Shown here one piece after another: positions 1,898-16,434 of a DNA stretch of 21,228 nucleotides. The position numbers and the translations under genes were made by a program. The first letter of the stretch is position 1. Each line of letters starts with the position of its first letter. The DNA is from a virus, in IMG/VR virus record IMGVR_UViG_3300034175_000192, positions 1 through 21,228 of that record, one strand, 5' to 3'. The notes under the pieces are model-generated. The model did no database searches. It was not told the DNA's origin and saw only the letters and a list, made by a program, of their open reading frames with translations.

Positions 1898-1905
1898 CGT
1901 TTGTG

Positions 1906-1940
1906 GGCCGGCGCGGCGGGGTCGCGGCCGGCCTTTTGTT
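1906..1940 (+). terminator. Terminator-like hairpin 2 upstream of terS
   Basis: Perfect 7-bp arms GGCCGGC (1906-1912) and GCCGGCC (1927-1933) enclose a 14-base loop and are followed by TTTTGTT. It lies only about 19 bases before the terS start, so any GTA transcript starting upstream must read through it. The rest of 1803-1958 shows no gene and no convincing promoter that I can identify. Confidence 0.55.
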
Positions 1941-1958: not shown

Positions 1959-2438
1959 ATGGCCACGAGCGGCAAGATCGACTGGCGGTACACGGAGACG
2001 CGGCGACGCGATTTCCTGCGGGTGCTGGCGGAGACCTACGACGTGGATGCGGCGCTGACGGCGGGGAGGCTGACCTGGCCGCAGGTCTGCGAGCTGAGAG
2101 CGCGGCATCCGGAATTTGCCGAGCGGTTCGAGCAGGTGATTGCCGCCGGCTATGACCGGCTCGAGGCGCTGCTGCTGCGGCAGTCGGGGCTGGGCCGCGG
2201 GGGGCAGATCGACCTGGCGCTGGCGCAGGCCCTGCTGAAGCAGCGGCGCGCGGCGAAGGTCGAAGCGACGGCCGGCCGCGCCAGGCGCGGGAGCGCGGAG
2301 ACGGCGCGGTCGCGGAACGTGAACCACATCATCAAGCAATTCGAGCTGCTGCGCGCGGGGCAGGGGCAGGGGAGCAGGGCCGATGCAAATGGATCCGGTG
2401 GTCGCAATGCTTCGCAGGCAGCTGGCCGGGATCAGTGA
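1959..2438 (+). CDS. Small terminase subunit-like protein (GTA gp1 position)
   Basis: The 159-residue protein sits directly before the large terminase, the position of GTA gp1/TerS, which selects DNA and hands it to the packaging motor. The N-terminal third reads like a helix-turn-helix region (YDVDAALTAGRLTWPQVCELRARHPEF, quoted in parts: DVDAALTAGRLTW then RARHPEFAERF). An alpha-helical, possibly oligomerising middle follows, then a basic segment (residues about 97-120). The ATG at 1959 is preceded by a purine-rich CCGAGGGAG. The last 18 or so codons overlap the start of terL by 56 bases; this tail is low-complexity (G, S, A, N) and may be dispensable. Assignment rests on position and size more than on a diagnostic motif. 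Confidence 0.7.
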   Translation: MATSGKIDWRYTETRRRDFLRVLAETYDVDAALTAGRLTWPQVCELRARHPEFAERFEQVIAAGYDRLEALLLRQSGLGRGGQIDLALAQALLKQRRAAKVEATAGRARRGSAETARSRNVNHIIKQFELLRAGQGQGSRADANGSGGRNASQAAGRDQ

Positions 2439-3711
2439 CTATGAGGTGGAGATGGTGTGCGGATGGCTCGATGCCCGACCGCGCAAGCCCGATTGGATGC
2501 CGCATCCCGGGCAAAGCGCGCCCCCGGGGGCGTGGCGGGTGTGGCTGATGCTCGCCGGGCGGGGGTTCGGCAAGACGCGGGCGGGAGCGGAATGGGTGTC
2601 CAAGCTGGCGCGCCAGGATGAGAGGATGCGCATCGCGCTGGTCGGCGGGACGATCGACGAGGTCGCCAACGTGATGATCCGCGGCGAAAGCGGGCTGATG
2701 GCGGTTGCGCGGGCGGACGAGGAATTGGTGTGGGTGCCGTCCACGCGGACATTGACCTTCGCGAACGGCGCGCAGGCATTCGCTTATTCGGGCGAACGGC
2801 CGGACAAGTTGCGCGGCCCCGAGCATCATATCGCCTGGTGCGACGAGCTGGCCAAATGGTCGCATCCGCAGAAGACGTGGGACAATCTGATGCTCGGGCT
2901 GCGGCTGGGGCGGCGGCCGCGGGTGCTGGTGACGACGACGCCGCGGCCGATCACACTGGTGAAGCAGCTCGCGCGCGATCCGCAGACAGTACGGGCGAAG
3001 GCGCCGGGGAGGACGCAGGACAATCCGCATCTGCCGGGCGCGTTCGTGGCGGACGTGCGCGAGCGCTATGGCGGGACAAGGCTGGGGCGGCAGGAGCTGG
3101 ACGGCGAGCTGATCGAGGATGTGGAAGGCGCGTTGTGGACGCGCGACATGGTGGAGCGGGCCAGAGTGGCCGTCGGCTTCGCCCGGGACGAGCGGGATCT
3201 GTTCACGCGGATCGTGATCGGGGTGGATCCGCCGGTGTCGGCCGAGGGCGATGCGTGCGGGATCGTGGCCGTAGGCCTCGGGGCGGACGGCATCGGCTAT
3301 GTGATCGGCGACCATAGTGTGAGCGGGCTCAGCCCCGAAGGCTGGGCGCGGGCGGTGGCGGCCGCCGCCGAGGCGCACGGCGCGGACCGGGTGGTCGCCG
3401 AGGCGAACCAGGGGGGTGCGATGGTGGAAAGCGTGCTGCGGGCGGCCGATTGCGCGCTGCCGGTGCGGCTGGTCCATGCGCGGCGCGGCAAATCGGCGCG
3501 GGCGGAGCCGGTCGCGGCCCTGTTCGAGAACGGACGGGCGCGGTTCGCGGGAGCGTTTCCGGAGCTCGAGGACGAGCTGACCGGGCTCACCATCGGCGGC
3601 GGCTATGAAGGGCCGAGCAGGTCGCCGGACCGGGCGGACGCAATGGTGTGGGCGATGACCGAGCTGATGCTGAAGCCCAAGGGCGCCGCGCCGCGGATCA
3701 GAATGCTTTGA
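2383..3711 (+). CDS. terL: Large terminase subunit, DNA-packaging ATPase/nuclease (GTA gp2)
   Basis: This is the packaging motor. The N-terminal ATPase shows an adenine-binding/Walker A region LAGRGFGKTRAGAEW (P-loop about residues 59-65), Walker B with catalytic acid in IAWCDE (D154-E155), and the coupling motif TTTPRP (184-189). The C-terminal RNase H-like nuclease shows a first acidic strand VIGVDPP (D282), a second in VVAEANQGG (E340) and a final DRADAM (D416/D419). The length (442 aa) is normal for GTA-type terminases. The start at 2383 has a G-rich Shine-Dalgarno (AGGGGAGCAGGG) and overlaps the terS end; a second in-frame ATG at 2389 is possible. In canonical GTA clusters the portal follows directly; here two unrelated genes intervene. 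Confidence 0.95.
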   Translation: MQMDPVVAMLRRQLAGISDYEVEMVCGWLDARPRKPDWMPHPGQSAPPGAWRVWLMLAGRGFGKTRAGAEWVSKLARQDERMRIALVGGTIDEVANVMIRGESGLMAVARADEELVWVPSTRTLTFANGAQAFAYSGERPDKLRGPEHHIAWCDELAKWSHPQKTWDNLMLGLRLGRRPRVLVTTTPRPITLVKQLARDPQTVRAKAPGRTQDNPHLPGAFVADVRERYGGTRLGRQELDGELIEDVEGALWTRDMVERARVAVGFARDERDLFTRIVIGVDPPVSAEGDACGIVAVGLGADGIGYVIGDHSVSGLSPEGWARAVAAAAEAHGADRVVAEANQGGAMVESVLRAADCALPVRLVHARRGKSARAEPVAALFENGRARFAGAFPELEDELTGLTIGGGYEGPSRSPDRADAMVWAMTELMLKPKGAAPRIRML

Positions 3712-3761: not shown

Positions 3762-4754
3762 ATGAAGCCGGAAGAAGGCGAGCCGGAGAAGGACGCGGAG
3801 GCGCAGCTGGCGCTTGGGCGGCGGCTGATGATCGCAGAAGGGGTGGAGCGCGAGGCCGCGCAGGGCGCGCGGCTGATCGAGCAGGCTTGCGCGGGGGGCA
3901 GCGCCGAGGCGGCGGCGACGATGGCGGCATTCGCCGCCATGGGTGCGGGCCGGCCGCAGAATTGGGAGCAGGCGTTCGATTATCTGTTGATTGCGGCGCA
4001 GCGGGGCTCGGGTGCGGCGCGGGGGCAGCTGGCGCTGCTCGGCCGCGATCCGGGACTGGCCGCCGAGGCGCAGCGCGGGGAGCCGGAAGCGGCGGACCTG
4101 TGGAAACGGCTGCGGGCGGGAGTGGATGTCGCGGGGTTGACGGCGGCGCCGGAGCGCAGGCCGATCTCGGAAACGCCGCGCGTGCGGGTGATCGAGGGGT
4201 TCGCGACGGCGGCCGAATGCGATTGGGCGGTGGCGGTGGCGAAGGACAGATTGAGCCGGGCCGCGATCCTCGACCCGGGCAGCGGCGAGAAGAAGAGCCA
4301 CCCGGACCGGACCAACAGCGCTATGGGGTTCGAAGCCGTGGATATGGACGTCGTCATACAAGTGCTGAGGGCCAGGATCGCGGCGGTGAGCAATCTGCCG
4401 GTGCCGGTGTTCGAGCCCGCGCAGATCATGCATTATTCCGTGGGCCAGGAGTTCCGGCCGCATTTCGACTACATGGACCCCCAGACGCCGGGCGGGCGGC
4501 AGGAGCTTGGACGCTTCGGACAGAGAATCGCGACCTTCCTTCTGTACCTGAACGACGATTTCGAGGGTGGGGAGACCGAGTTCCCGCGGGCCGGGATTCG
4601 CTACCGCGGGCGCAAGGGCGACGCGCTGCTGTTCGGCAATGTGGATGGGGCGGGGCGGCCCGACCCGCTGACGCTGCACGCCGGGCGGCCCCCGAGCCGG
4701 GGCGAGAAATGGATATTGTCGCAGTGGATCAGGGACCGGTCGCCGGGGGCATGA
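3762..4754 (+). CDS. Sel1-like repeat plus prolyl-4-hydroxylase-type 2OG-Fe(II) oxygenase
   Basis: The 330-residue protein has two parts. Residues about 10-120 are Ala/Gly-rich helical repeats of Sel1/TPR-like type (RRLMIAEGVEREAAQGARL, then NWEQAFDYLLIAAQRGSGAA). Residues about 138-325 are a P4H-type oxygenase: iron ligands H234 and D236 in FRPHFDYMD, the third ligand H306 in LHAGRPP, and the 2-oxoglutarate-binding lysine K316 ten residues later in GEKWILSQWIRDR. GGETEFP (269-275) is also characteristic. All key residues are present, so it should be active, hydroxylating a protein or peptide with 2-oxoglutarate, O2 and iron. The start has GGAG seven bases upstream. It lies between terL and the portal, where RcGTA has no gene; the substrate is unknown. 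Confidence 0.88.
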   Translation: MKPEEGEPEKDAEAQLALGRRLMIAEGVEREAAQGARLIEQACAGGSAEAAATMAAFAAMGAGRPQNWEQAFDYLLIAAQRGSGAARGQLALLGRDPGLAAEAQRGEPEAADLWKRLRAGVDVAGLTAAPERRPISETPRVRVIEGFATAAECDWAVAVAKDRLSRAAILDPGSGEKKSHPDRTNSAMGFEAVDMDVVIQVLRARIAAVSNLPVPVFEPAQIMHYSVGQEFRPHFDYMDPQTPGGRQELGRFGQRIATFLLYLNDDFEGGETEFPRAGIRYRGRKGDALLFGNVDGAGRPDPLTLHAGRPPSRGEKWILSQWIRDRSPGA

Positions 4755-4857
4755 AGCGGCGCGGGCGGCGGGCTGGCGGTGACGGGTCGGCGCTTGCGCG
4801 GCGGGGCCCGGGAGGGCAATCTGCCGCGTCATCGCATCCGGGAGGGGGACCGCCGGC

Positions 4858-5376
4858 ATGATGTGGATACGTCTTTTCTTCTTCGCCGTGCCGGTGGGGT
4901 TCATCGCCGCGGGCCTGTGGCTGCTGATATCGGGCGGGCAGTCGGTTGCCGAAGCCGAGGGGTGGGAGACCACGCAAGGGATCGTCCTGTCGTCAGACCG
5001 GATCGACCCGCGGCTGATGTCCGACGGGCGGACCAGCGGCAACCGATATAATGCGGCGATATCCTACCGCTACGACGTGGGCGGGCGCACTTATCATAAC
5101 GACCGGGTGTGGCTGACGCAGAATGCCGGTTGGGCCACGACGGACGGCGCCGATGAATTCCTGGAGGATTATCGGCCGGGCGCGCCGGTCGCGGTGATAT
5201 ACGACCCGCAGGACCCGGCGCGGTCGGCGTTGCGCATGGAGCGGGGCTGGATGTTGCCGCTGGTGTTGCTCGGCTTCGGGCTGATGGCCTTGTACACCGC
5301 GATCAAGGCGATGCGGCAATATGAGCGCGGCCCGCAGCGGAAGCGGCCGGCGCCGCGGGCGGCTCGCCGGGACTAG
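4858..5376 (+). CDS. DUF3592 membrane protein
   Basis: The 172-residue protein has a membrane helix at residues about 5-25 (LFFFAVPVGFIAAGLWLLI), an extracytoplasmic beta-rich domain (about 30-125), a second membrane helix at about 131-148, and a basic cytoplasmic tail (RKRPAPRAARR). The domain carries the DUF3592 pattern: a W-x-T-T-x-G-x-V strand near 36-43, YRYDVGGRTYHNDRV (70-84) and VAVIYDPQDPARSAL (111-125). The start ATG at 4858 follows GGGAGGGGG by about nine bases; an ATG at 4861 is an equal alternative. No enzymatic role is known for the family. It is the second cargo gene between terL and the portal, and no GTA role can be deduced. Confidence 0.85.
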   Translation: MMWIRLFFFAVPVGFIAAGLWLLISGGQSVAEAEGWETTQGIVLSSDRIDPRLMSDGRTSGNRYNAAISYRYDVGGRTYHNDRVWLTQNAGWATTDGADEFLEDYRPGAPVAVIYDPQDPARSALRMERGWMLPLVLLGFGLMALYTAIKAMRQYERGPQRKRPAPRAARRD

Positions 5377-5430
5377 AAGTCGCGGGCGGCGGAGAGATCC
5401 GCTGGCACGGACGGAGCAGAGGAGCGGCAG

Positions 5431-6609
5431 ATGAAATGGTTTGGCCGGAAGGCCGTGCGGGATGCCGCGCGGCCTTTTTTGTTGCGTGGCGCGTGGGGCG
5501 CGATCGGGGCGGAGGCTTTGCCCCGCTCCTACGAGGCGCAGGTGCGCGAGGCGGTTTGCGGCAATGCGGTGGCGCAACGCTGCGTGCGGCTGGTGGCCGA
5601 GGCGGTGGGTTCGGTGACGGTGGATGCCGCCCAGGGAGAGAAGGACAGCCCCCTTCAACTGCCTGCCTCCGGCAGTCGCTCAGGACAGGCTTCGACAGAC
5701 TCAGGGAAGGCGGTTTCCCTGATATCCGGTGGCCTCCTGGAGACGGCGGCGATGCATTTGCTGCTGCATGGCAATGCCTTCGTCCAGGTGGCGCAGGACG
5801 GGGCGGCGATGCCGGCGGGCCTGTTCGCGCTGCGGCCCGAGCGGGTGAAGGTGGAGCCGGACGCGGGCGGGTGGCCGGCGGCCTATCGCTACCGAGCCGG
5901 GGCGGCGGAGCGGCGCTACGCGGCTGTGGATGGGTTGGGGCGGCCGGGCGTGGTGCATGTGCGCGCGCCCCATCCGCTCGACGATCATTATGGGCTGGGG
6001 TGCCTGGGCGCGGCGGCGGCGGCGGTGGGGGTGCACAATGCGGCGGCGCGGTGGAACCAGGCATTGCTCGACAATGCGGCGCGGCCCAGCGGGGCCCTGG
6101 TCTACGATTCGGGCGACGGGGCGGTGCTGGCGCCGGCGCAGTTCGAGCGGCTGAAGAATGAGATGGAAGCGCAGTTCATGGGAAGCGGCAATGCCGGGCG
6201 GCCGATGCTGCTGGAAGGCGGGCTCAAATGGCAGGCGATGAGCCTGTCGCCGGCCGACATGGACTTCGTGGAGATCAAGGCGGCGGCGGCGCGGGAGATC
6301 GCTTTGGCATTCGGGGTGCCACCGATGCTGGTCGGGCTGCCGGGCGACAATGCCTATGCCAATTACCGCGAGGCGGTGCGCTCGCTGTGGCGGCTTACCG
6401 TGCTGCCGATGGCGGGGCGGATATTGGAGGCGCTCGGCGAGGGGCTGAGCGCGTGGTGGCCGGGGCTGAAGCTGGCGGTGGATGTCGACCAGGTGAGCGC
6501 GCTGCACGCGGACCGATCTGAGCTGTGGGCGCAGGTGAGCGGGGCGGACTTTCTCACCAAGGAGGAGAAACGGGAGATGCTGGGCTTCTCGAGGGAGGCG
6601 GTGCGATGA
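5431..6609 (+). CDS. HK97-family portal protein (GTA gp3)
   Basis: The portal forms the dodecameric ring at one capsid vertex through which DNA enters and to which the tail attaches. The 392-residue sequence shows the usual family landmarks: RSYEAQVREA near residues 32-41, VAQRCVRLVAEAVG (47-60), MHLLLHGNAFVQV (108-120), HPLDDHYGLG, and the C-terminal wing/clip segment with AFGVPPMLVGLPGDNAYANYREA (in parts: AFGVPPMLVG, GDNAYANYREA). Start ATG 5431 follows GGAGCGG. Two oddities are overlaid on the coding sequence: a terminator-shaped hairpin over codons 7-17, and a palindromic repeat giving a low-complexity peptide at about residues 73-93 (SPLQLPASGSRSG), where portals normally have a conserved loop. 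The frame is intact, so the protein is probably functional. It overlaps the next gene by ATGA. Confidence 0.93.
   Translation: MKWFGRKAVRDAARPFLLRGAWGAIGAEALPRSYEAQVREAVCGNAVAQRCVRLVAEAVGSVTVDAAQGEKDSPLQLPASGSRSGQASTDSGKAVSLISGGLLETAAMHLLLHGNAFVQVAQDGAAMPAGLFALRPERVKVEPDAGGWPAAYRYRAGAAERRYAAVDGLGRPGVVHVRAPHPLDDHYGLGCLGAAAAAVGVHNAAARWNQALLDNAARPSGALVYDSGDGAVLAPAQFERLKNEMEAQFMGSGNAGRPMLLEGGLKWQAMSLSPADMDFVEIKAAAAREIALAFGVPPMLVGLPGDNAYANYREAVRSLWRLTVLPMAGRILEALGEGLSAWWPGLKLAVDVDQVSALHADRSELWAQVSGADFLTKEEKREMLGFSREAVR
5451..5480 (+). terminator. Intrinsic-terminator-shaped hairpin inside the portal gene
   Basis: Arms GGCCGTGCGG (5451-5460) and CCGCGCGGCC (5465-5474) pair over 10 bp, one of them a U-G pair, around the tetraloop GATG, and are followed directly by six T then GTT. 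It covers codons 7 to 17 of the portal gene. In form it is a textbook Rho-independent terminator or attenuator on the coding strand; active translation of the first codons would be expected to prevent its folding. Confidence 0.6.
5651..5706 (+). repeat. REP-like palindromic repeat in frame within portal gene
   Basis: The segment contains CTGCC-TCC-GGCAG (5663-5675) and GCTCAGGACAGG next to GGCTTCGACAGACTCAGG. The latter is a variant of the CTTCGACAAGCTCAGG repeat seen elsewhere in this window (14918-14940, 18509-18533). It encodes a Ser/Gly/Pro-rich peptide without breaking the frame. Confidence 0.6.
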
Positions 6610-7573: not shown

Positions 7574-7604
7574 CATTAGCCTGCGGCGCAGCAGGTTGGT
7601 CAGG

Positions 7605-7627
7605 GGGCGCTTCGGCGCCCTTTTTTT
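7605..7627 (+). terminator. Strong intrinsic-terminator hairpin 25 bases before the capsid start
   Basis: A perfect GC stem GGGCGC (7605-7610) / GCGCCC (7615-7620) with the stable tetraloop TTCG is followed by seven T. This is a canonical Rho-independent terminator. It sits between the protease and capsid genes with no room for a promoter downstream, so it must be bypassed, or serve as a 5' stabilising hairpin for a processed capsid mRNA. Confidence 0.8.
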
Positions 7628-8793: not shown

Positions 8794-8952
8794 TTCACGC
8801 GGAGGCGCGGAGGAGAAGGGGAGACGCGGAGGGCCGAGGGGTGCGGCGGGCGTGGCGCTCAGTCTCGACTGCTTTTGCTGGCGAGCTTTGCTCGCCTTTT
8901 TCTTCTCCGCGTCTCCCCGTTTTCCCTCCGCGCCTCCGCGCCTCCGCATGAA
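8794..8952 (+). repeat. Palindromic intergenic repeat, copy 2 (downstream of capsid gene)
   Basis: The left end (TTCACGCGGAGGCGCGGAGG, continuing five more identical bases) repeats copy 1. The right end CCTCCGCATGAA (8941-8952) is its inverse with one mismatch. The interior carries further inverse stretches such as GCGAGC-TTT-GCTCGC (8881-8895). With the half element at 9033-9057 it fills the 302-base gap between the capsid and fibre genes; I see no gene there. Confidence 0.75.
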
Positions 8953-9032
8953 AGTATCTTCTCTGCGCTTCCGAACGGCAGCGCGTCCCTTCGCCAAGCT
9001 GCGCTGGCCGCTGACGCGGCCGGCTTCGCTAT

Positions 9033-9057
9033 CCTCGCCCGCAAGGGGAGAGGAGGG
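9033..9057 (+). promoter_or_regulatory. Repeat-derived Shine-Dalgarno of the fibre gene
   Basis: A half copy of the CTCCCCTTGCGGGAG-type repeat (CTCGCCCGCAAGGGGAG) ends in GGGGAGAGGAGGG (9045-9057), ten bases before the fibre ATG at 9068. The same 13-mer precedes the gene at 14137. The repeat tail therefore appears to be the ribosome binding site. Confidence 0.6.
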
Positions 9058-9067
9058 AGTTGAAATC

Positions 9068-10429
9068 ATGACCTTGTTCTTTGCCGATCTGGTTCGGGAA
9101 TATTCGCTGTCGGCCGGGGCGGGCGATTTCGTGCTGGCGGGCGCGGTGGCTGGGCATCGGCGGTTCGGCGATGCGGTGCCGGCGGGCGCGCGGTTCCACT
9201 ATGGGATCGCCGGCGTCACGCATCCGGAGGAGTGGGAGACGGGCGAGGGGGAGATTGGCAGCGGCGGCACCTTGATGCGCGCGCCTTTGGTCTCCTCGGC
9301 AGGCGTGGTGTCGGAATCGGAGCAGGTGCGGCTGGTGGACTTCGCGCCCGGCCTCAAGGTCGTGACGCTGACGGTGGCGGCCCAGTGGTTCGACCGCCAG
9401 GAGGCGGGGGTCGGGATCGCGGACGTCACCGGGCTGGCGGCGGCGCTGGCCGGGAAGGCGGCCGCCGGGCACGACCACCAGGGCAGCTACGCGCCGGCGG
9501 CCCACCATCACGACGAGGCTTATGCGGCAGCGGGACACGGGCATGACGGCGTCTATGCGGCGGCCGGGCATCACCATGACGGCGCCTATGCGCCGGCTGG
9601 GCACAATCATGACGGGAGTTACGCGCCGGCGGGGCACGATCATGACGGGAGTTACGCGCCGGCCGGGCACGATCATGAGGGCATCTATGCCGCGGCGGGG
9701 CACGACCATGATGGCGATTATGCCGCCGCCGGCCATGACCATGACTCGGCCTACCAGCCGCGCGATGCGGAGCTGGACGCGCTGGCGGGGCTGAGCGGCG
9801 CGGCGGATCGAGCCCCTTATTTCACCGGTCCAGGGGAGGCGGCGCTGACGCCGCTCACCGGCTTTGGCCGCAGCCTGATCGACGATGCCGACGCGGCGGC
9901 GGCGCGGTCGACGCTTGCGCTGGGCAGCGCCGCAGTGAAGGCGACCGGCACGAGCGGCGATGCGGTCCCGGTGCTGAACGGGGGCGAGGCGAACTGGAGC
10001 GCGGGTGCGACCTTCAACGGGATCATCACTTCGACCGTGGGCGGCATCAACAGCTACGGCGTGCTGCGCGGCTTCGACGATTATCACCGGATCATCCTGC
10101 GCGGGTCGCAGGATGCGTCCGGCACCGTCACGCTGGGTGACCTGACGACGTTTTCGCAATGGGGCGGCGAGTACCGGTTCGAGCAGCGCACGACGACGGG
10201 AATATTCCGCAGGCTGCTGCACATCACGCCGGAAAGCATATCCTTGCGCCCGCTCGGGTCGACAATGCTGAACATCGACGCTTCCGGCGCCCAGGTGGCC
10301 GGCGCGCTGCGCTGCGGCAGCCTGCAGATCGACGCGGCGCCCCAGGCGGCGCCTGGGGCGGCGGCGACCCACAAGCTGGCGGTGAACCTCAACGGCACAA
10401 TCTACCACCTGCTGCTGAGCAGCAGCTGA
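9068..10429 (+). CDS. Tail-fibre-like protein with nine His-x-His repeats
   Basis: The 453-residue protein begins with a virion-anchoring-type domain (residues about 1-110, ending [14 protein letters not shown]), as seen at the N-terminus of alphaproteobacterial phage fibres. Residues 134-232 are nine 11-residue repeats of consensus [11 protein letters not shown], every one with an H-x-H motif. H-x-H pairs in trimeric phage fibres and spikes bind metal ions along the axis. A linker with [12 protein letters not shown] follows (about 233-250), and the rest (about 255-453) is a beta-rich, presumably receptor-contacting, region. Start ATG 9068 is chosen for the Shine-Dalgarno upstream; the open frame before it is repeat DNA. 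Placement directly after the capsid gene is unusual for a tail fibre. Confidence 0.8.
9467..9763 (+). repeat. Nine tandem 33-bp repeats in the fibre gene
   Basis: Nine in-frame units of 33 bp starting at 9467, 9500, 9533, 9566, 9599, 9632, 9665, 9698 and 9731 encode the 11-residue H-x-H unit. Units 5 and 6 are close to identical at the DNA level. Copy number could vary by recombination without breaking the frame. Confidence 0.9.
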
Positions 10430-13973: not shown

Positions 13974-14128
13974 CCTTCTCCCCTTGCGGGAGAAGGTGCC
14001 CCGGAGGGGCGGATGTGGGGTTGCGGCCTGCCGGCCGCAGGGCGCTGAAGCGCCGAGCCCTCACCAGGCTACGCTAGTCCCGGCCTTCGCCGGGACAAGC
14101 TTCGCCATCCTCTCCCGCAGGGGAGAGG
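13974..14128 (+). repeat. Composite palindromic element (five hairpins) before the DUF2460 gene
   Basis: Hairpins in order are CCTTCTCCC/GGGAGAAGG (13974-13996), TGCGGCC/GGCCGCA (14022-14039), GGCGC/GCGCC (14041-14054), GTCCCGGC/GCCGGGAC (14077-14096) and CCTCTCCC/GGGAGAGG (14109-14128). First and last are inverse relatives, so the whole element is also one long inverted repeat. Its right end supplies the ribosome binding site of the next gene. Confidence 0.8.
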
Positions 14129-14132
14129 AGGG
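14120..14132 (+). promoter_or_regulatory. Repeat-derived Shine-Dalgarno of the DUF2460 gene
   Basis: GGGGAGAGGAGGG, the edge of the composite repeat, lies just before ATG 14137 with its GGAGG core about five bases away. It is identical to the 13-mer at 9045-9057 before the fibre gene. It decides the start, since the frame is open further upstream through repeat DNA. Confidence 0.6.
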
Positions 14133-14136
14133 AAAC

Positions 14137-16434
14137 ATGGGACATTGGCTTGTGCCGGAGAGCTCCGGGCGGCGGGACGGCTTCTTGAAGCGGTTTGCGG
14201 CGCCGTTTTGGACAGTGGATTTTCCGCGGCCTATGATGGCGAGCGTTTGTACGACTGCGCCGGACGCATTGCGGGTGGAGTGCCTGTTCTACCGGCAGGA
14301 CGATCTGGCGGGGTTGATCTGGGCGGCTCACGACAAGGCCGACCATGTGCTGCTGCGCTACGAGACGGCGCGGGATTTCCGGCGGTGCCGGCTGAGCTTT
14401 CGGTGGCGGTCGGGCGGCGTGAAGGCGCTGGATGCCGTGCACGGGCCGACCTTGACGATCGAGGGACGGGACGCGGCGGGGCAGGCGCGGACGTGGCTGG
14501 TGCGGCTGTGGAATTATGCCAGCGGCGCGCCCGAGGACGCGGCGGTGAGCCTCGACTTCGGCGATTTGCGGGCGGGTTTCTTGGCGGGCGGCGAGCCCGT
14601 CTTCGCGGGGGATGTGGACCGGATGTTCATCTCGCTGGTGGCGCCCGGTTATACGGCGCAGGACCTGCCGCTGGCGGCGCCGGCGCAAGGGTGGGCTGAG
14701 CTTTCGCAGATCGCCTGCGACGGATCGGGTTCGGTGCTCGCGGTCGGCGAGGCATTGGTGCCGGAGCACCGGCTGCGGATCGCCACCGGATATGACGATC
14801 TTTATCACCTGGCGCCTGAGCGGGTGCTACGGAACATCGTGGCGCTCGGCTATCGCGGGGCGATCAACCATTATGTCGGGATGAGCCACTATTTCCTTCT
14901 GGATGAGGAAGGAAAGGCAGGGCCTTCGACAAGCTCAGGCAAGACCGAGGTCTTGAATGGGCCATGCCGGGCATGGCACGCGGATTTCGCACAGCGGGCG
15001 AAGGCGCTGGGAATCGAGCTGATCTGGTCGCTCTCCTACGAGCTGCTCGACATGCATTGCCCGGAGGCTTGGAAGCAGCGGGCTGCGAACGGGTCGCCGG
15101 CGCTGACCGGGTGGGAACCGCCTTCGGCGTTGCTGTCGCCGGCGCATGACGAGGCGATGGGCTATTTGCGGGCGGTGACGGCGGCGTTTGCGGGCATCGC
15201 CGTCGAGGCCGGGTTGGGGGTGCGGTTCCAGGTGGGCGAGCCGTGGTGGTGGGTGACCGCGGATGGGCGGATCTGCCTCTATGACGCGGCGGCGGTCGCG
15301 CGCTTTGCGCCGGTGGCGATTGCGGATGTGCGGGGGTCGCTGAGTGCGCCCCAGGTGGCGACGCTGGACGCGGCGGGGGCGGTGCTGGCGGAGTCTACGG
15401 CGGCCTTGTGTGGGGCGGTGAAGGCGGTGGCGGCGGACGCGGAGAGGCTGCTGCTGGCCTATCTGCCGACGGTGCTGGACACGCAGGCGCCGGAGGTGAA
15501 GCGGGCGAATTTGCCGATCGGCTGGGCCTATCCCGGGTTCGATGTGCTGCAGCTGGAGGATTATGACTGGGCGGCCGCCGGCGCGCACGGCGCGACCGCA
15601 CGCGGGGTGGCGGAGGCGGAAGCGCGGCTCGGCTACGGACCGGAGCGGCAGCATTATTTCGCCGGCTTCGTGCTGCGGCCGGAGGATCGGGCGCAATGGG
15701 ATGCGATTGCGGAGGCGGCGGGGCGGGCGCTGGCGCGGGGGACTGCGGAGGTGTTCGTATGGGCGCTGCCGCAGGTGCTGCGCGACGGCTTCCTTTGGTT
15801 TGGCGAGGAGGATGGGGTGGAGAGTTTCGACGATGTGCTGTTTCCCGTGTCGCTAGGGCGGGAGGCGAGCGTGGAGCCCGGCTTTTCGACGGCGATCGTG
15901 GAGACGGCGGGCGGGACGGAGCAGCGCAATGCGGACTGGGCTGATGCGCGCATGCGGTTCGACGCCGGGCCAGGGGTGCGGGGGGAAGCGGAGCTGGGCG
16001 CGCTGATCGCCTTCTTTCGAGCGCGGCGCGGGGCGGCGGCGGCCTTCAGGTTTCGCGACCCGTTTGACGACAGTTCGAACGGGATGAGCGGGGTGCCTGG
16101 CGCGGCGGACCAGCTGCTGGGCGTGGGGGACGGGGTACGGACCGACTTCGCGCTGGTGAAGGATTATGGCGGGCAGGAGCGGCGGATCACGCGGCCGGTG
16201 GCGGGGAGCGTGCGGGCGTCGGTCGGGGGGGTGGAGCGGTTGAGCGGGTGGACTCTGGCGCAGAAGGGCGTGGTGTCGTTCGCGGTCGCGCCGGCGGCTG
16301 GAGCGGAGGTGCGCGCGGGGTTCCGGTTCGACGTGCCGGTGCGGTTCGAGGAGGACCGGCTGCAGGTCAGCCGGGCGACGTTCCTGGCTGGCGAGGCGGC
16401 GAGCGTGAAGCTGGTGGAGGTGCGGGAGGTTTAA
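14137..16434 (+). CDS. DUF2460 tail protein with long N-terminal TIM-barrel-like extension (GTA gp12 position)
   Basis: At 765 residues this is several times longer than a plain DUF2460 protein (about 200). Residues about 575-765 are the DUF2460 domain: STAIVETAGGTEQRNADW, ELGALIAFFRARRG, AFRFRDPFDD, FRFDVPVRFEEDRL. DUF2460 is the distal tail (baseplate) component of GTAs. The N-terminal part has a beta domain (about 1-240: PFWTVDFPRPMMASV, LSFRWRSGGVKAL) and a likely alpha/beta barrel (about 240-560) with ELIWSLSYELLD, RFQVGEPWWWV and INHYVGMSHYFLLD, similar to what is annotated in some phages as non-contractile tail sheath protein. A repeat-derived peptide (GPSTSSGKTE, about 261-270) sits in this barrel. 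The gene stop overlaps the stop of the minus-strand gene. Confidence 0.85.
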   Translation: MGHWLVPESSGRRDGFLKRFAAPFWTVDFPRPMMASVCTTAPDALRVECLFYRQDDLAGLIWAAHDKADHVLLRYETARDFRRCRLSFRWRSGGVKALDAVHGPTLTIEGRDAAGQARTWLVRLWNYASGAPEDAAVSLDFGDLRAGFLAGGEPVFAGDVDRMFISLVAPGYTAQDLPLAAPAQGWAELSQIACDGSGSVLAVGEALVPEHRLRIATGYDDLYHLAPERVLRNIVALGYRGAINHYVGMSHYFLLDEEGKAGPSTSSGKTEVLNGPCRAWHADFAQRAKALGIELIWSLSYELLDMHCPEAWKQRAANGSPALTGWEPPSALLSPAHDEAMGYLRAVTAAFAGIAVEAGLGVRFQVGEPWWWVTADGRICLYDAAAVARFAPVAIADVRGSLSAPQVATLDAAGAVLAESTAALCGAVKAVAADAERLLLAYLPTVLDTQAPEVKRANLPIGWAYPGFDVLQLEDYDWAAAGAHGATARGVAEAEARLGYGPERQHYFAGFVLRPEDRAQWDAIAEAAGRALARGTAEVFVWALPQVLRDGFLWFGEEDGVESFDDVLFPVSLGREASVEPGFSTAIVETAGGTEQRNADWADARMRFDAGPGVRGEAELGALIAFFRARRGAAAAFRFRDPFDDSSNGMSGVPGAADQLLGVGDGVRTDFALVKDYGGQERRITRPVAGSVRASVGGVERLSGWTLAQKGVVSFAVAPAAGAEVRAGFRFDVPVRFEEDRLQVSRATFLAGEAASVKLVEVREV
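14918..14940 (+). repeat. REP-like repeat in frame within the DUF2460 gene
   Basis: CAGGGCCTTCGACAAGCTCA and the following GGC match the repeat at 18507-18526 and the variant in the portal gene. It is translated in frame as a Gly/Ser/Thr-rich peptide between two conserved barrel segments. Confidence 0.7.

What the first reader, a model, noticed from the sequence alone, without database searches (positions are those of the whole stretch)
5451..5480. Terminator-shaped hairpin embedded in the first codons of the portal gene
A 10-bp stem with a tetraloop and six T lies over codons 7-17 of the portal gene, on the coding strand. Being inside a gene start, it could work as a translation-sensitive attenuator: if the first codons are not translated, transcription of all downstream particle genes would stop. 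That would couple GTA expression to ribosome loading or to an antitermination factor.
Basis: partly seen in the sequence, partly recalled or inferred. Interest (0 to 1): 0.7.

Follow-up and report, generated by a model that had tools for sequence, protein, structure and literature searches.

The report
Transcription terminator hidden inside portal gene
The first codons of the portal-protein gene in this bacterial gene-transfer-agent cluster also spell a strong transcription-stop signal, which a whole group of related sphingomonads has kept by matching changes on both sides of the hairpin; this suggests the cluster is gated by a polymerase read-through mechanism like the one shown in Caulobacter.

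Summary
Codons 7-17 of the portal gene (ATG 5431) encode a 12-bp GC-rich hairpin (5449-5460/5465-5476, GAUG loop) followed by six T (5475-5480). In 33 related sphingomonad portals of the same type, 26 carry a hairpin plus T-run at this place, against about 1 expected from their amino acids and codon usage. The stem pairs in 98.6% of cells, with changes on both sides at five of 12 pairs. Codons CCT and GCC there show the strongest codon-choice excess of 205 conserved portal columns. So RNA-level selection acts inside the reading frame. Equivalents lie just upstream of the portal ATG in other sphingomonads. Sense-strand terminators also cluster before the terminase genes, at the capsid start and after the capsid, with almost none on the reverse strand. 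Caulobacter's GTA has a tested terminator after its terminase gene that GafZ lets polymerase bypass, and sphingomonads carry a DUF6456 (GafA-family) gene. Best reading: a dual-coding intrinsic terminator that blocks unmodified polymerase and is passed by GafA/GafZ-type antitermination. No RNA data were available.

The parts
5449..5460 (+). 5' arm of the terminator stem (AAGGCCGTGCGG; codons 7-10, K A V R of the portal)
5461..5464 (+). GATG tetraloop
5465..5476 (+). 3' arm of the stem (CCGCGCGGCCTT; codons 12-16)
5475..5480 (+). Six-T tract (first two paired), expected 3' end of transcript about 5477-5482
   Evidence: codon CCT kept in 29 of 33 homologues against 11% overall usage
5431..6609 (+). 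Portal protein gene in whose codons 7-17 the terminator is embedded
   Evidence: Pfam PF04860, TIGR01537 portal_HK97
5419..5433 (+). Shine-Dalgarno-like GGAG and ATG of the portal, directly upstream of the hairpin
   Evidence: read from sequence
2383..3711 (+). Large terminase gene, the anchor upstream of the terminator
   Evidence: Pfam Terminase_6N/6C
3762..4754 (+). 2OG-Fe(II) oxygenase gene lying between terminase and portal
   Evidence: Pfam PF13640
4858..5376 (+). DUF3592 gene ending 54 nt before the portal ATG; no other strong terminator in this gap
   Evidence: Pfam PF12158; scan
1905..1934 (+). Sense intrinsic terminator just upstream of the small-terminase-like ORF (hotspot shared by other loci)
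7604..7627 (+). Sense intrinsic terminator between prohead protease and major capsid genes (hotspot shared by other loci)
8880..8901 (+). Sense terminator-like hairpin after the capsid gene (weaker hotspot)

Best explanation
This is a genuine intrinsic (hairpin plus U-tract) transcription terminator written into codons 7-17 of the portal gene and maintained by selection in one sphingomonad clade of RcGTA-like gene transfer agents. Polymerase entering the particle genes from upstream (terminase, inserted host genes, read-through) should stop at about 5477-5482. Because the signal lies inside the ORF, every productive portal mRNA must come from polymerase that has passed it. The likely passer is an antiterminated polymerase carrying the GafA/GafZ-family (DUF6456) protein, as shown for the terminator after the terminase gene of the Caulobacter GTA. 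Shown here: presence, RNA-level selection, positional recurrence, presence of a DUF6456 gene. Inferred: that it terminates in vivo, and that GafA/GafZ-type antitermination relieves it.
For: Hairpin and T-run confirmed. Terminator present in 26 of 33 RPF/RPL-type portals against 0.98 expected from amino acids and codon usage. Covariation: 98.6% of cells paired, 5 of 12 pairs with changes on both sides, score 0.286 against 0.070 shuffled, and it collapses when the partner is slid by one column. The two most variable pairs use C-G, G-C, U-G, A-U and G-U with no mismatch; the G.U pairs point to RNA. Codons 15 (CCT) and 8 (GCC) rank first and second of 205 conserved columns for codon-choice excess. 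Codon insertions and deletions leave the stem intact (L013, L081, L160) or shift it whole (L004, L017, L169). A homologue examined only after the pattern was defined, L282, has it too. Sense terminators peak at portal -50..+50 (39 of about 186 loci, 2 reverse), capsid -100..+100 (51 of 165, 0 reverse), capsid end 0-200 (18 of about 143, 2 reverse) and 400-900 nt before terL (25 hits, 85-124 loci per bin, 0 reverse). In L010 the terminase stop is only 11 nt before the portal ATG and the terminator is still there. Caulobacter terGTA lies just after gtaT and is bypassed with GafZ (PMC11150451). A DUF6456 family member is in all 6 sphingomonad genomes tested and in Caulobacter; gafA homologues are in 196 of 208 GTA genomes (PMC9765227).
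Against: No 3'-end or RNA-seq data. Not universal: most sphingomonad loci have no strict terminator between terminase and portal (123 of 160). Inside the clade several members have lost the T-run (L001, the nearest relative by identity; L082, L146, L243) or interrupt it as TTTG (L159, L160, L166) while keeping the stem. GafA-dependent antitermination is untested in sphingomonads. The Caulobacter terminator is a different structure (three 150-bp repeats). Sequences are related, so shuffles are not true probabilities.
Confidence: 0.6

Rival explanations
1. Translation-sensitive attenuator: a ribosome on the first portal codons keeps the hairpin from forming, and without translation the head-tail genes are not transcribed.
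For: The hairpin is inside translated codons with a Shine-Dalgarno-like site just upstream. Translation-dependent attenuation is documented in alphaproteobacteria (S. meliloti uORF/DUF1127, PMC12218461).
Against: Equivalent terminators lie upstream of the ATG in about 20 loci, and the distance from ATG varies from +17 to +98. No conserved competing structure seen. Polymerase reaches the U-tract about 50 nt after the ATG, so a ribosome would have to load at once. In the window the upstream gene ends 54 nt before the ATG.
Confidence: 0.15
2. A plain transcript-end terminator or insulator for the upstream gene(s), leaky enough for the portal, with no dedicated antitermination; or a partial terminator that sets the ratio of particle proteins.
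For: Sense-only terminators at module boundaries look like transcription-unit ends. In the window two non-GTA-like genes lie upstream.
Against: The signal is inside the portal ORF, so no portal mRNA can start downstream of it. It persists where the terminase stop is only 11-67 nt upstream (L010, L193). The predicted terminator is strong, not weak.
Confidence: 0.2
3. Accident of protein sequence and GC-rich codon usage.
For: The KA and RPF residues naturally give AAGGCC and GGCCTT.
Against: Synonymous null 0.98 against 26 observed; covariation; CCT 88% here against 0-36% at the other conserved proline columns.
Confidence: 0.02
4. Programmed -1 frameshift at T TTT TTG making a second protein.
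For: CCT TTT TTG is slippery and the window's -1 frame is open for 227 codons.
Against: The -1 frame length ranges from 17 to 479 codons among homologues, and many have CTG or TTTG, which breaks the heptamer.
Confidence: 0.01

Closest known systems
terGTA of the Caulobacter crescentus GTA with GafY/GafZ antitermination (PMC11150451)
   Same: A terminator between the terminase gene and the rest of an RcGTA-like cluster; polymerase must pass it to make the particle genes; a GafA-family relative (DUF6456) is present in sphingomonads.
   Different: terGTA is three 150-bp repeats downstream of gtaT; here it is a single compact hairpin plus U-tract inside the portal coding sequence. Antitermination has not been tested here.
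Phage lambda Q/tR' and N/tR1 antitermination (general knowledge)
   Same: Terminators gate downstream genes until a modified polymerase reads through.
   Different: The lambda terminators are not, to my knowledge, embedded in the first codons of a structural gene; no Q or N homologue is implied.
Translation-dependent attenuators and ORF-internal 3' ends in bacteria (PMC12218461; PMC7815308)
   Same: Premature termination at or near the start of a coding sequence.
   Different: The S. meliloti case depends on translation of a separate uORF; this one lies within the main ORF and is conserved with covariation. PMC7815308 was seen as an abstract only.

Membership tests
Intrinsic (Rho-independent) terminator | Stable GC-rich hairpin | tested here: met
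   12-13 bp, about -26 kcal/mol
Intrinsic (Rho-independent) terminator | U-tract directly after the stem | tested here: met
   TTTTTT at 5475-5480
Intrinsic (Rho-independent) terminator | Transcripts end at the U-tract | not testable with these tools
   No RNA data
RcGTA-like gene transfer agent cluster (setting) | GTA-type structural genes in order terminase, portal, protease, capsid, tail genes | tested here: met
   Pfam PF04860, PF04586, PF05065, GTA-gp10 PF11836, Rcc01698_C PF23666; NCBIfam Rcc01695 family. The GTA_megatron hit is below its curated cut-off.
GTA antitermination checkpoint (terGTA-like) | Terminator between terminase and the downstream particle genes | tested here: met
   Embedded at the portal start; equivalents upstream of ATG in other loci
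GTA antitermination checkpoint (terGTA-like) | GafZ/GafA-family gene in the host | tested here: met
   DUF6456 over cut-off in 6 of 6 sphingomonad genomes, two of them with portals carrying the hairpin (L132, L081). The window's own host genome is not held.
GTA antitermination checkpoint (terGTA-like) | Read-through depends on GafZ/GafA | not testable with these tools
   Needs a reporter or Term-seq
GTA antitermination checkpoint (terGTA-like) | Tandem 150-bp repeats as in Caulobacter | not tested
   The window shows a single compact hairpin here; no dedicated repeat search was run
Translation-coupled attenuator | Conserved competing structure or leader peptide | tested here: inconclusive
   None seen by eye in the window or aligned homologues; no formal search of upstream regions

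The most novel reading that the evidence does not exclude
The coding sequence of a GTA structural gene has been shaped, in codon choice and partly in amino acids, to carry the operon's antitermination checkpoint, so that portal mRNA can only be made by antiterminated polymerase. Sphingomonad GTA clusters more generally carry several such sense-strand checkpoints (before the terminase genes, at portal, at capsid, after capsid), implying processive antitermination of the whole cluster.
Probability: 0.5. Interest if true: 0.75.

Novelty: new variant of a known kind. Interest (0 to 1): 0.62.

Why it matters
GafZ-type antitermination of GTA genes was shown in Caulobacter with an unusual repeat terminator. 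A compact, conserved, covarying terminator at the matching place in sphingomonads suggests that the checkpoint is a wider principle of GTA control, and it gives a 50-nt target that can be tested with a simple reporter. It is also a clear case of dual coding: protein and terminator in the same codons, with matched changes across the stem.

Tried and rejected
-1 frameshift: no conserved product. Codon-usage accident: synonymous null. DNA-only palindrome: G.U pairs at the variable positions and the sense-only T-run argue for RNA. Misannotated start (hairpin in the 5' UTR): the MK-W-FGRK N-terminus is conserved across sphingomonads and the indels in this stretch are whole codons. Terminator belonging only to the inserted upstream genes: also present where the terminase is 11-67 nt away. 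The background gene-caller control placed the portal start downstream of the hairpin in its own genome and so missed it; it is used only as a rough background. The terminator scanner and its thresholds were written after the window's hairpin was known.

Full report
Observation. The sequence at 5431 reads ATG AAA TGG TTT GGC CGG AAG GCC GTG CGG GAT GCC GCG CGG CCT TTT TTG TTG. The ORF 5431-6609 is a phage portal protein (PF04860, E=3e-73; portal_HK97). AAGGCCGTGCGG (5449-5460) pairs with CCGCGCGGCCTT (5465-5476) around a GATG loop; T5475-T5480 is a six-T tract. RNA folding gives this hairpin as the centroid, -26.5 kcal/mol, z -2.8 in 60 nt and -3.9 in 144 nt.

Setting. The cluster is of the RcGTA type: terminase, portal, DUF6127, prohead protease, capsid, then connector, tail tube, GTA-gp10, Rcc01695-family distal tail protein, NlpC/P60 and an Rcc01698-like protein. 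A 2OG-Fe(II) oxygenase and a DUF3592 gene lie between terminase and portal. The portal ATG follows the DUF3592 stop by 54 nt.

Conservation. Portal relatives were collected from viral contigs and genomes and reduced to 196 distinct loci. Portals whose N-terminus reads ...RKA.......RP(F/L)(L/V/F) form most of one clade of about 39 rows (local support 93), which includes Sphingosinicella, Allosphingosinicella and UBA2369 members. In 33 of these the codons are AAG (32/33), GCC (33/33), CGG (33/33) and CCT (29/33), although CCT is only 11% of proline codons in these genes. Of 205 well-conserved portal columns, codons 15 and 8 rank first and second in codon-choice excess. Keeping each protein sequence and drawing codons from usage, a terminator of this class should occur in 0.98 of 33; it occurs in 26. 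L282, examined after the pattern was defined, also has it.

Covariation. On 29 distinct stems, 98.6% of cells pair, 5 of 12 pairs show changes on both sides, and the covariation score is 0.286 against 0.070 for shuffles and 0.11 or less when the partner is slid. The most variable pairs (columns 8-21 and 9-20) use C-G, G-C, U-G, A-U and G-U without one mismatch, while the residues there change among A, G, E and V. L243 swaps A-U for G-C at the 2-27 pair. L013 and L160 lose a codon and L081 gains one, yet the stem re-forms; in L004, L017 and L169 an insert after codon 7 moves the hairpin whole. Shuffles do not correct for relatedness, so these numbers are strong but not exact probabilities.

Position across GTA clusters. 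In the wider set, sense-strand terminators peak sharply at the portal start (-50..+50: 39 of about 186 loci, reverse strand 2), either just before the ATG (for example L092, L097, L187, L201, L120) or inside the first codons. L007 and L004 have both; L015, which lost the embedded T-run, has one overlapping the terminase end. Other sense-only peaks lie 400-900 nt before terL (just upstream of the small-terminase-like ORF in the window), at the capsid start (51 of 165, reverse 0) and after the capsid (18 of about 143, reverse 2). The peaks are not universal: 123 of 160 loci have no strict terminator between terminase and portal.

Mechanism. In Caulobacter a terminator directly after the first gene, the terminase gtaT, stops a constitutive promoter, and GafZ allows part of the polymerase through, probably with NusA, NusG and NusE (PMC11150451). 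Caulobacter GafY and GafZ correspond to the N- and C-terminal parts of Rhodobacter GafA. gafA homologues, annotated DUF6456, occur in 196 of 208 GTA-bearing alphaproteobacteria of all GTA-containing orders (PMC9765227). A DUF6456 gene was found in all six sphingomonad genomes tested; in L220 it lies divergent from a Cro/C1-type HTH gene. That DUF6456 marks the GafZ side of GafA is inferred, not shown. The portal-embedded terminator occupies the same functional place as terGTA. Because it lies inside the ORF, portal mRNA cannot be made by starting downstream of it; polymerase must pass it. Antitermination is therefore the simplest account. Translation masking is less likely because equivalents lie upstream of the ATG and because polymerase needs to travel only about 50 nt past the ATG.

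Limits. No RNA data, no sphingomonad test of GafA. The scan is a heuristic, and its thresholds were set after seeing the window. Some clade members lost the T-run or interrupt it. The whole-genome background count is rough. I found no earlier report of it in the held library, which is not the whole literature.

Noticed in passing
window 5640-5720 and 14925-14939: Two copies of TTCGACA(GA/AG)CTCAGG (chance 0.00) inside coding sequence; the first sits in an in-frame stretch of the portal gene (DSPLQLPASGSRSGQASTDSGK), looking like a dispersed sphingomonad repeat.
   Followed up: partly
L004:1500-1530, L017:3190-3215, L169 about 3060-3090, L128 portal start: A short palindromic insert (CATCRAAG-TGGTA-CTTYGATG in L004 and L017) sits in frame after portal codon 7; related peptide inserts are seen in L169 and L128. 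The core AAGTGGTACTT also occurs elsewhere in several GTA loci. Possibly a mobile repeat family.
   Followed up: partly
L007 -59..-30 and +20..+43 relative to portal ATG: Two almost identical terminators, one before and one inside the portal gene, suggesting local duplication or gene conversion.
   Followed up: no
window 7604-7627 and 1905-1934, plus same positions in other loci: Further sense-strand terminators at the protease-capsid boundary and before the small-terminase-like ORF; same orientation bias.
   Followed up: partly
window 3762-5376: 2OG-Fe(II) oxygenase and DUF3592 genes lie between terminase and portal; the terminase-portal gap varies from about 0 to more than 2,500 nt among relatives.
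   Followed up: partly
window 13984-16431: A TIM-barrel domain (PF23845) is fused to the DUF2460 distal tail protein, while the Rcc01698-like protein is short (718 aa; the GTA_megatron model has 1299 positions).
   Followed up: no
window 8852-10429: Repetitive AGH(D/H)HD-rich protein between capsid and tail genes, fibre-like.
   Followed up: no
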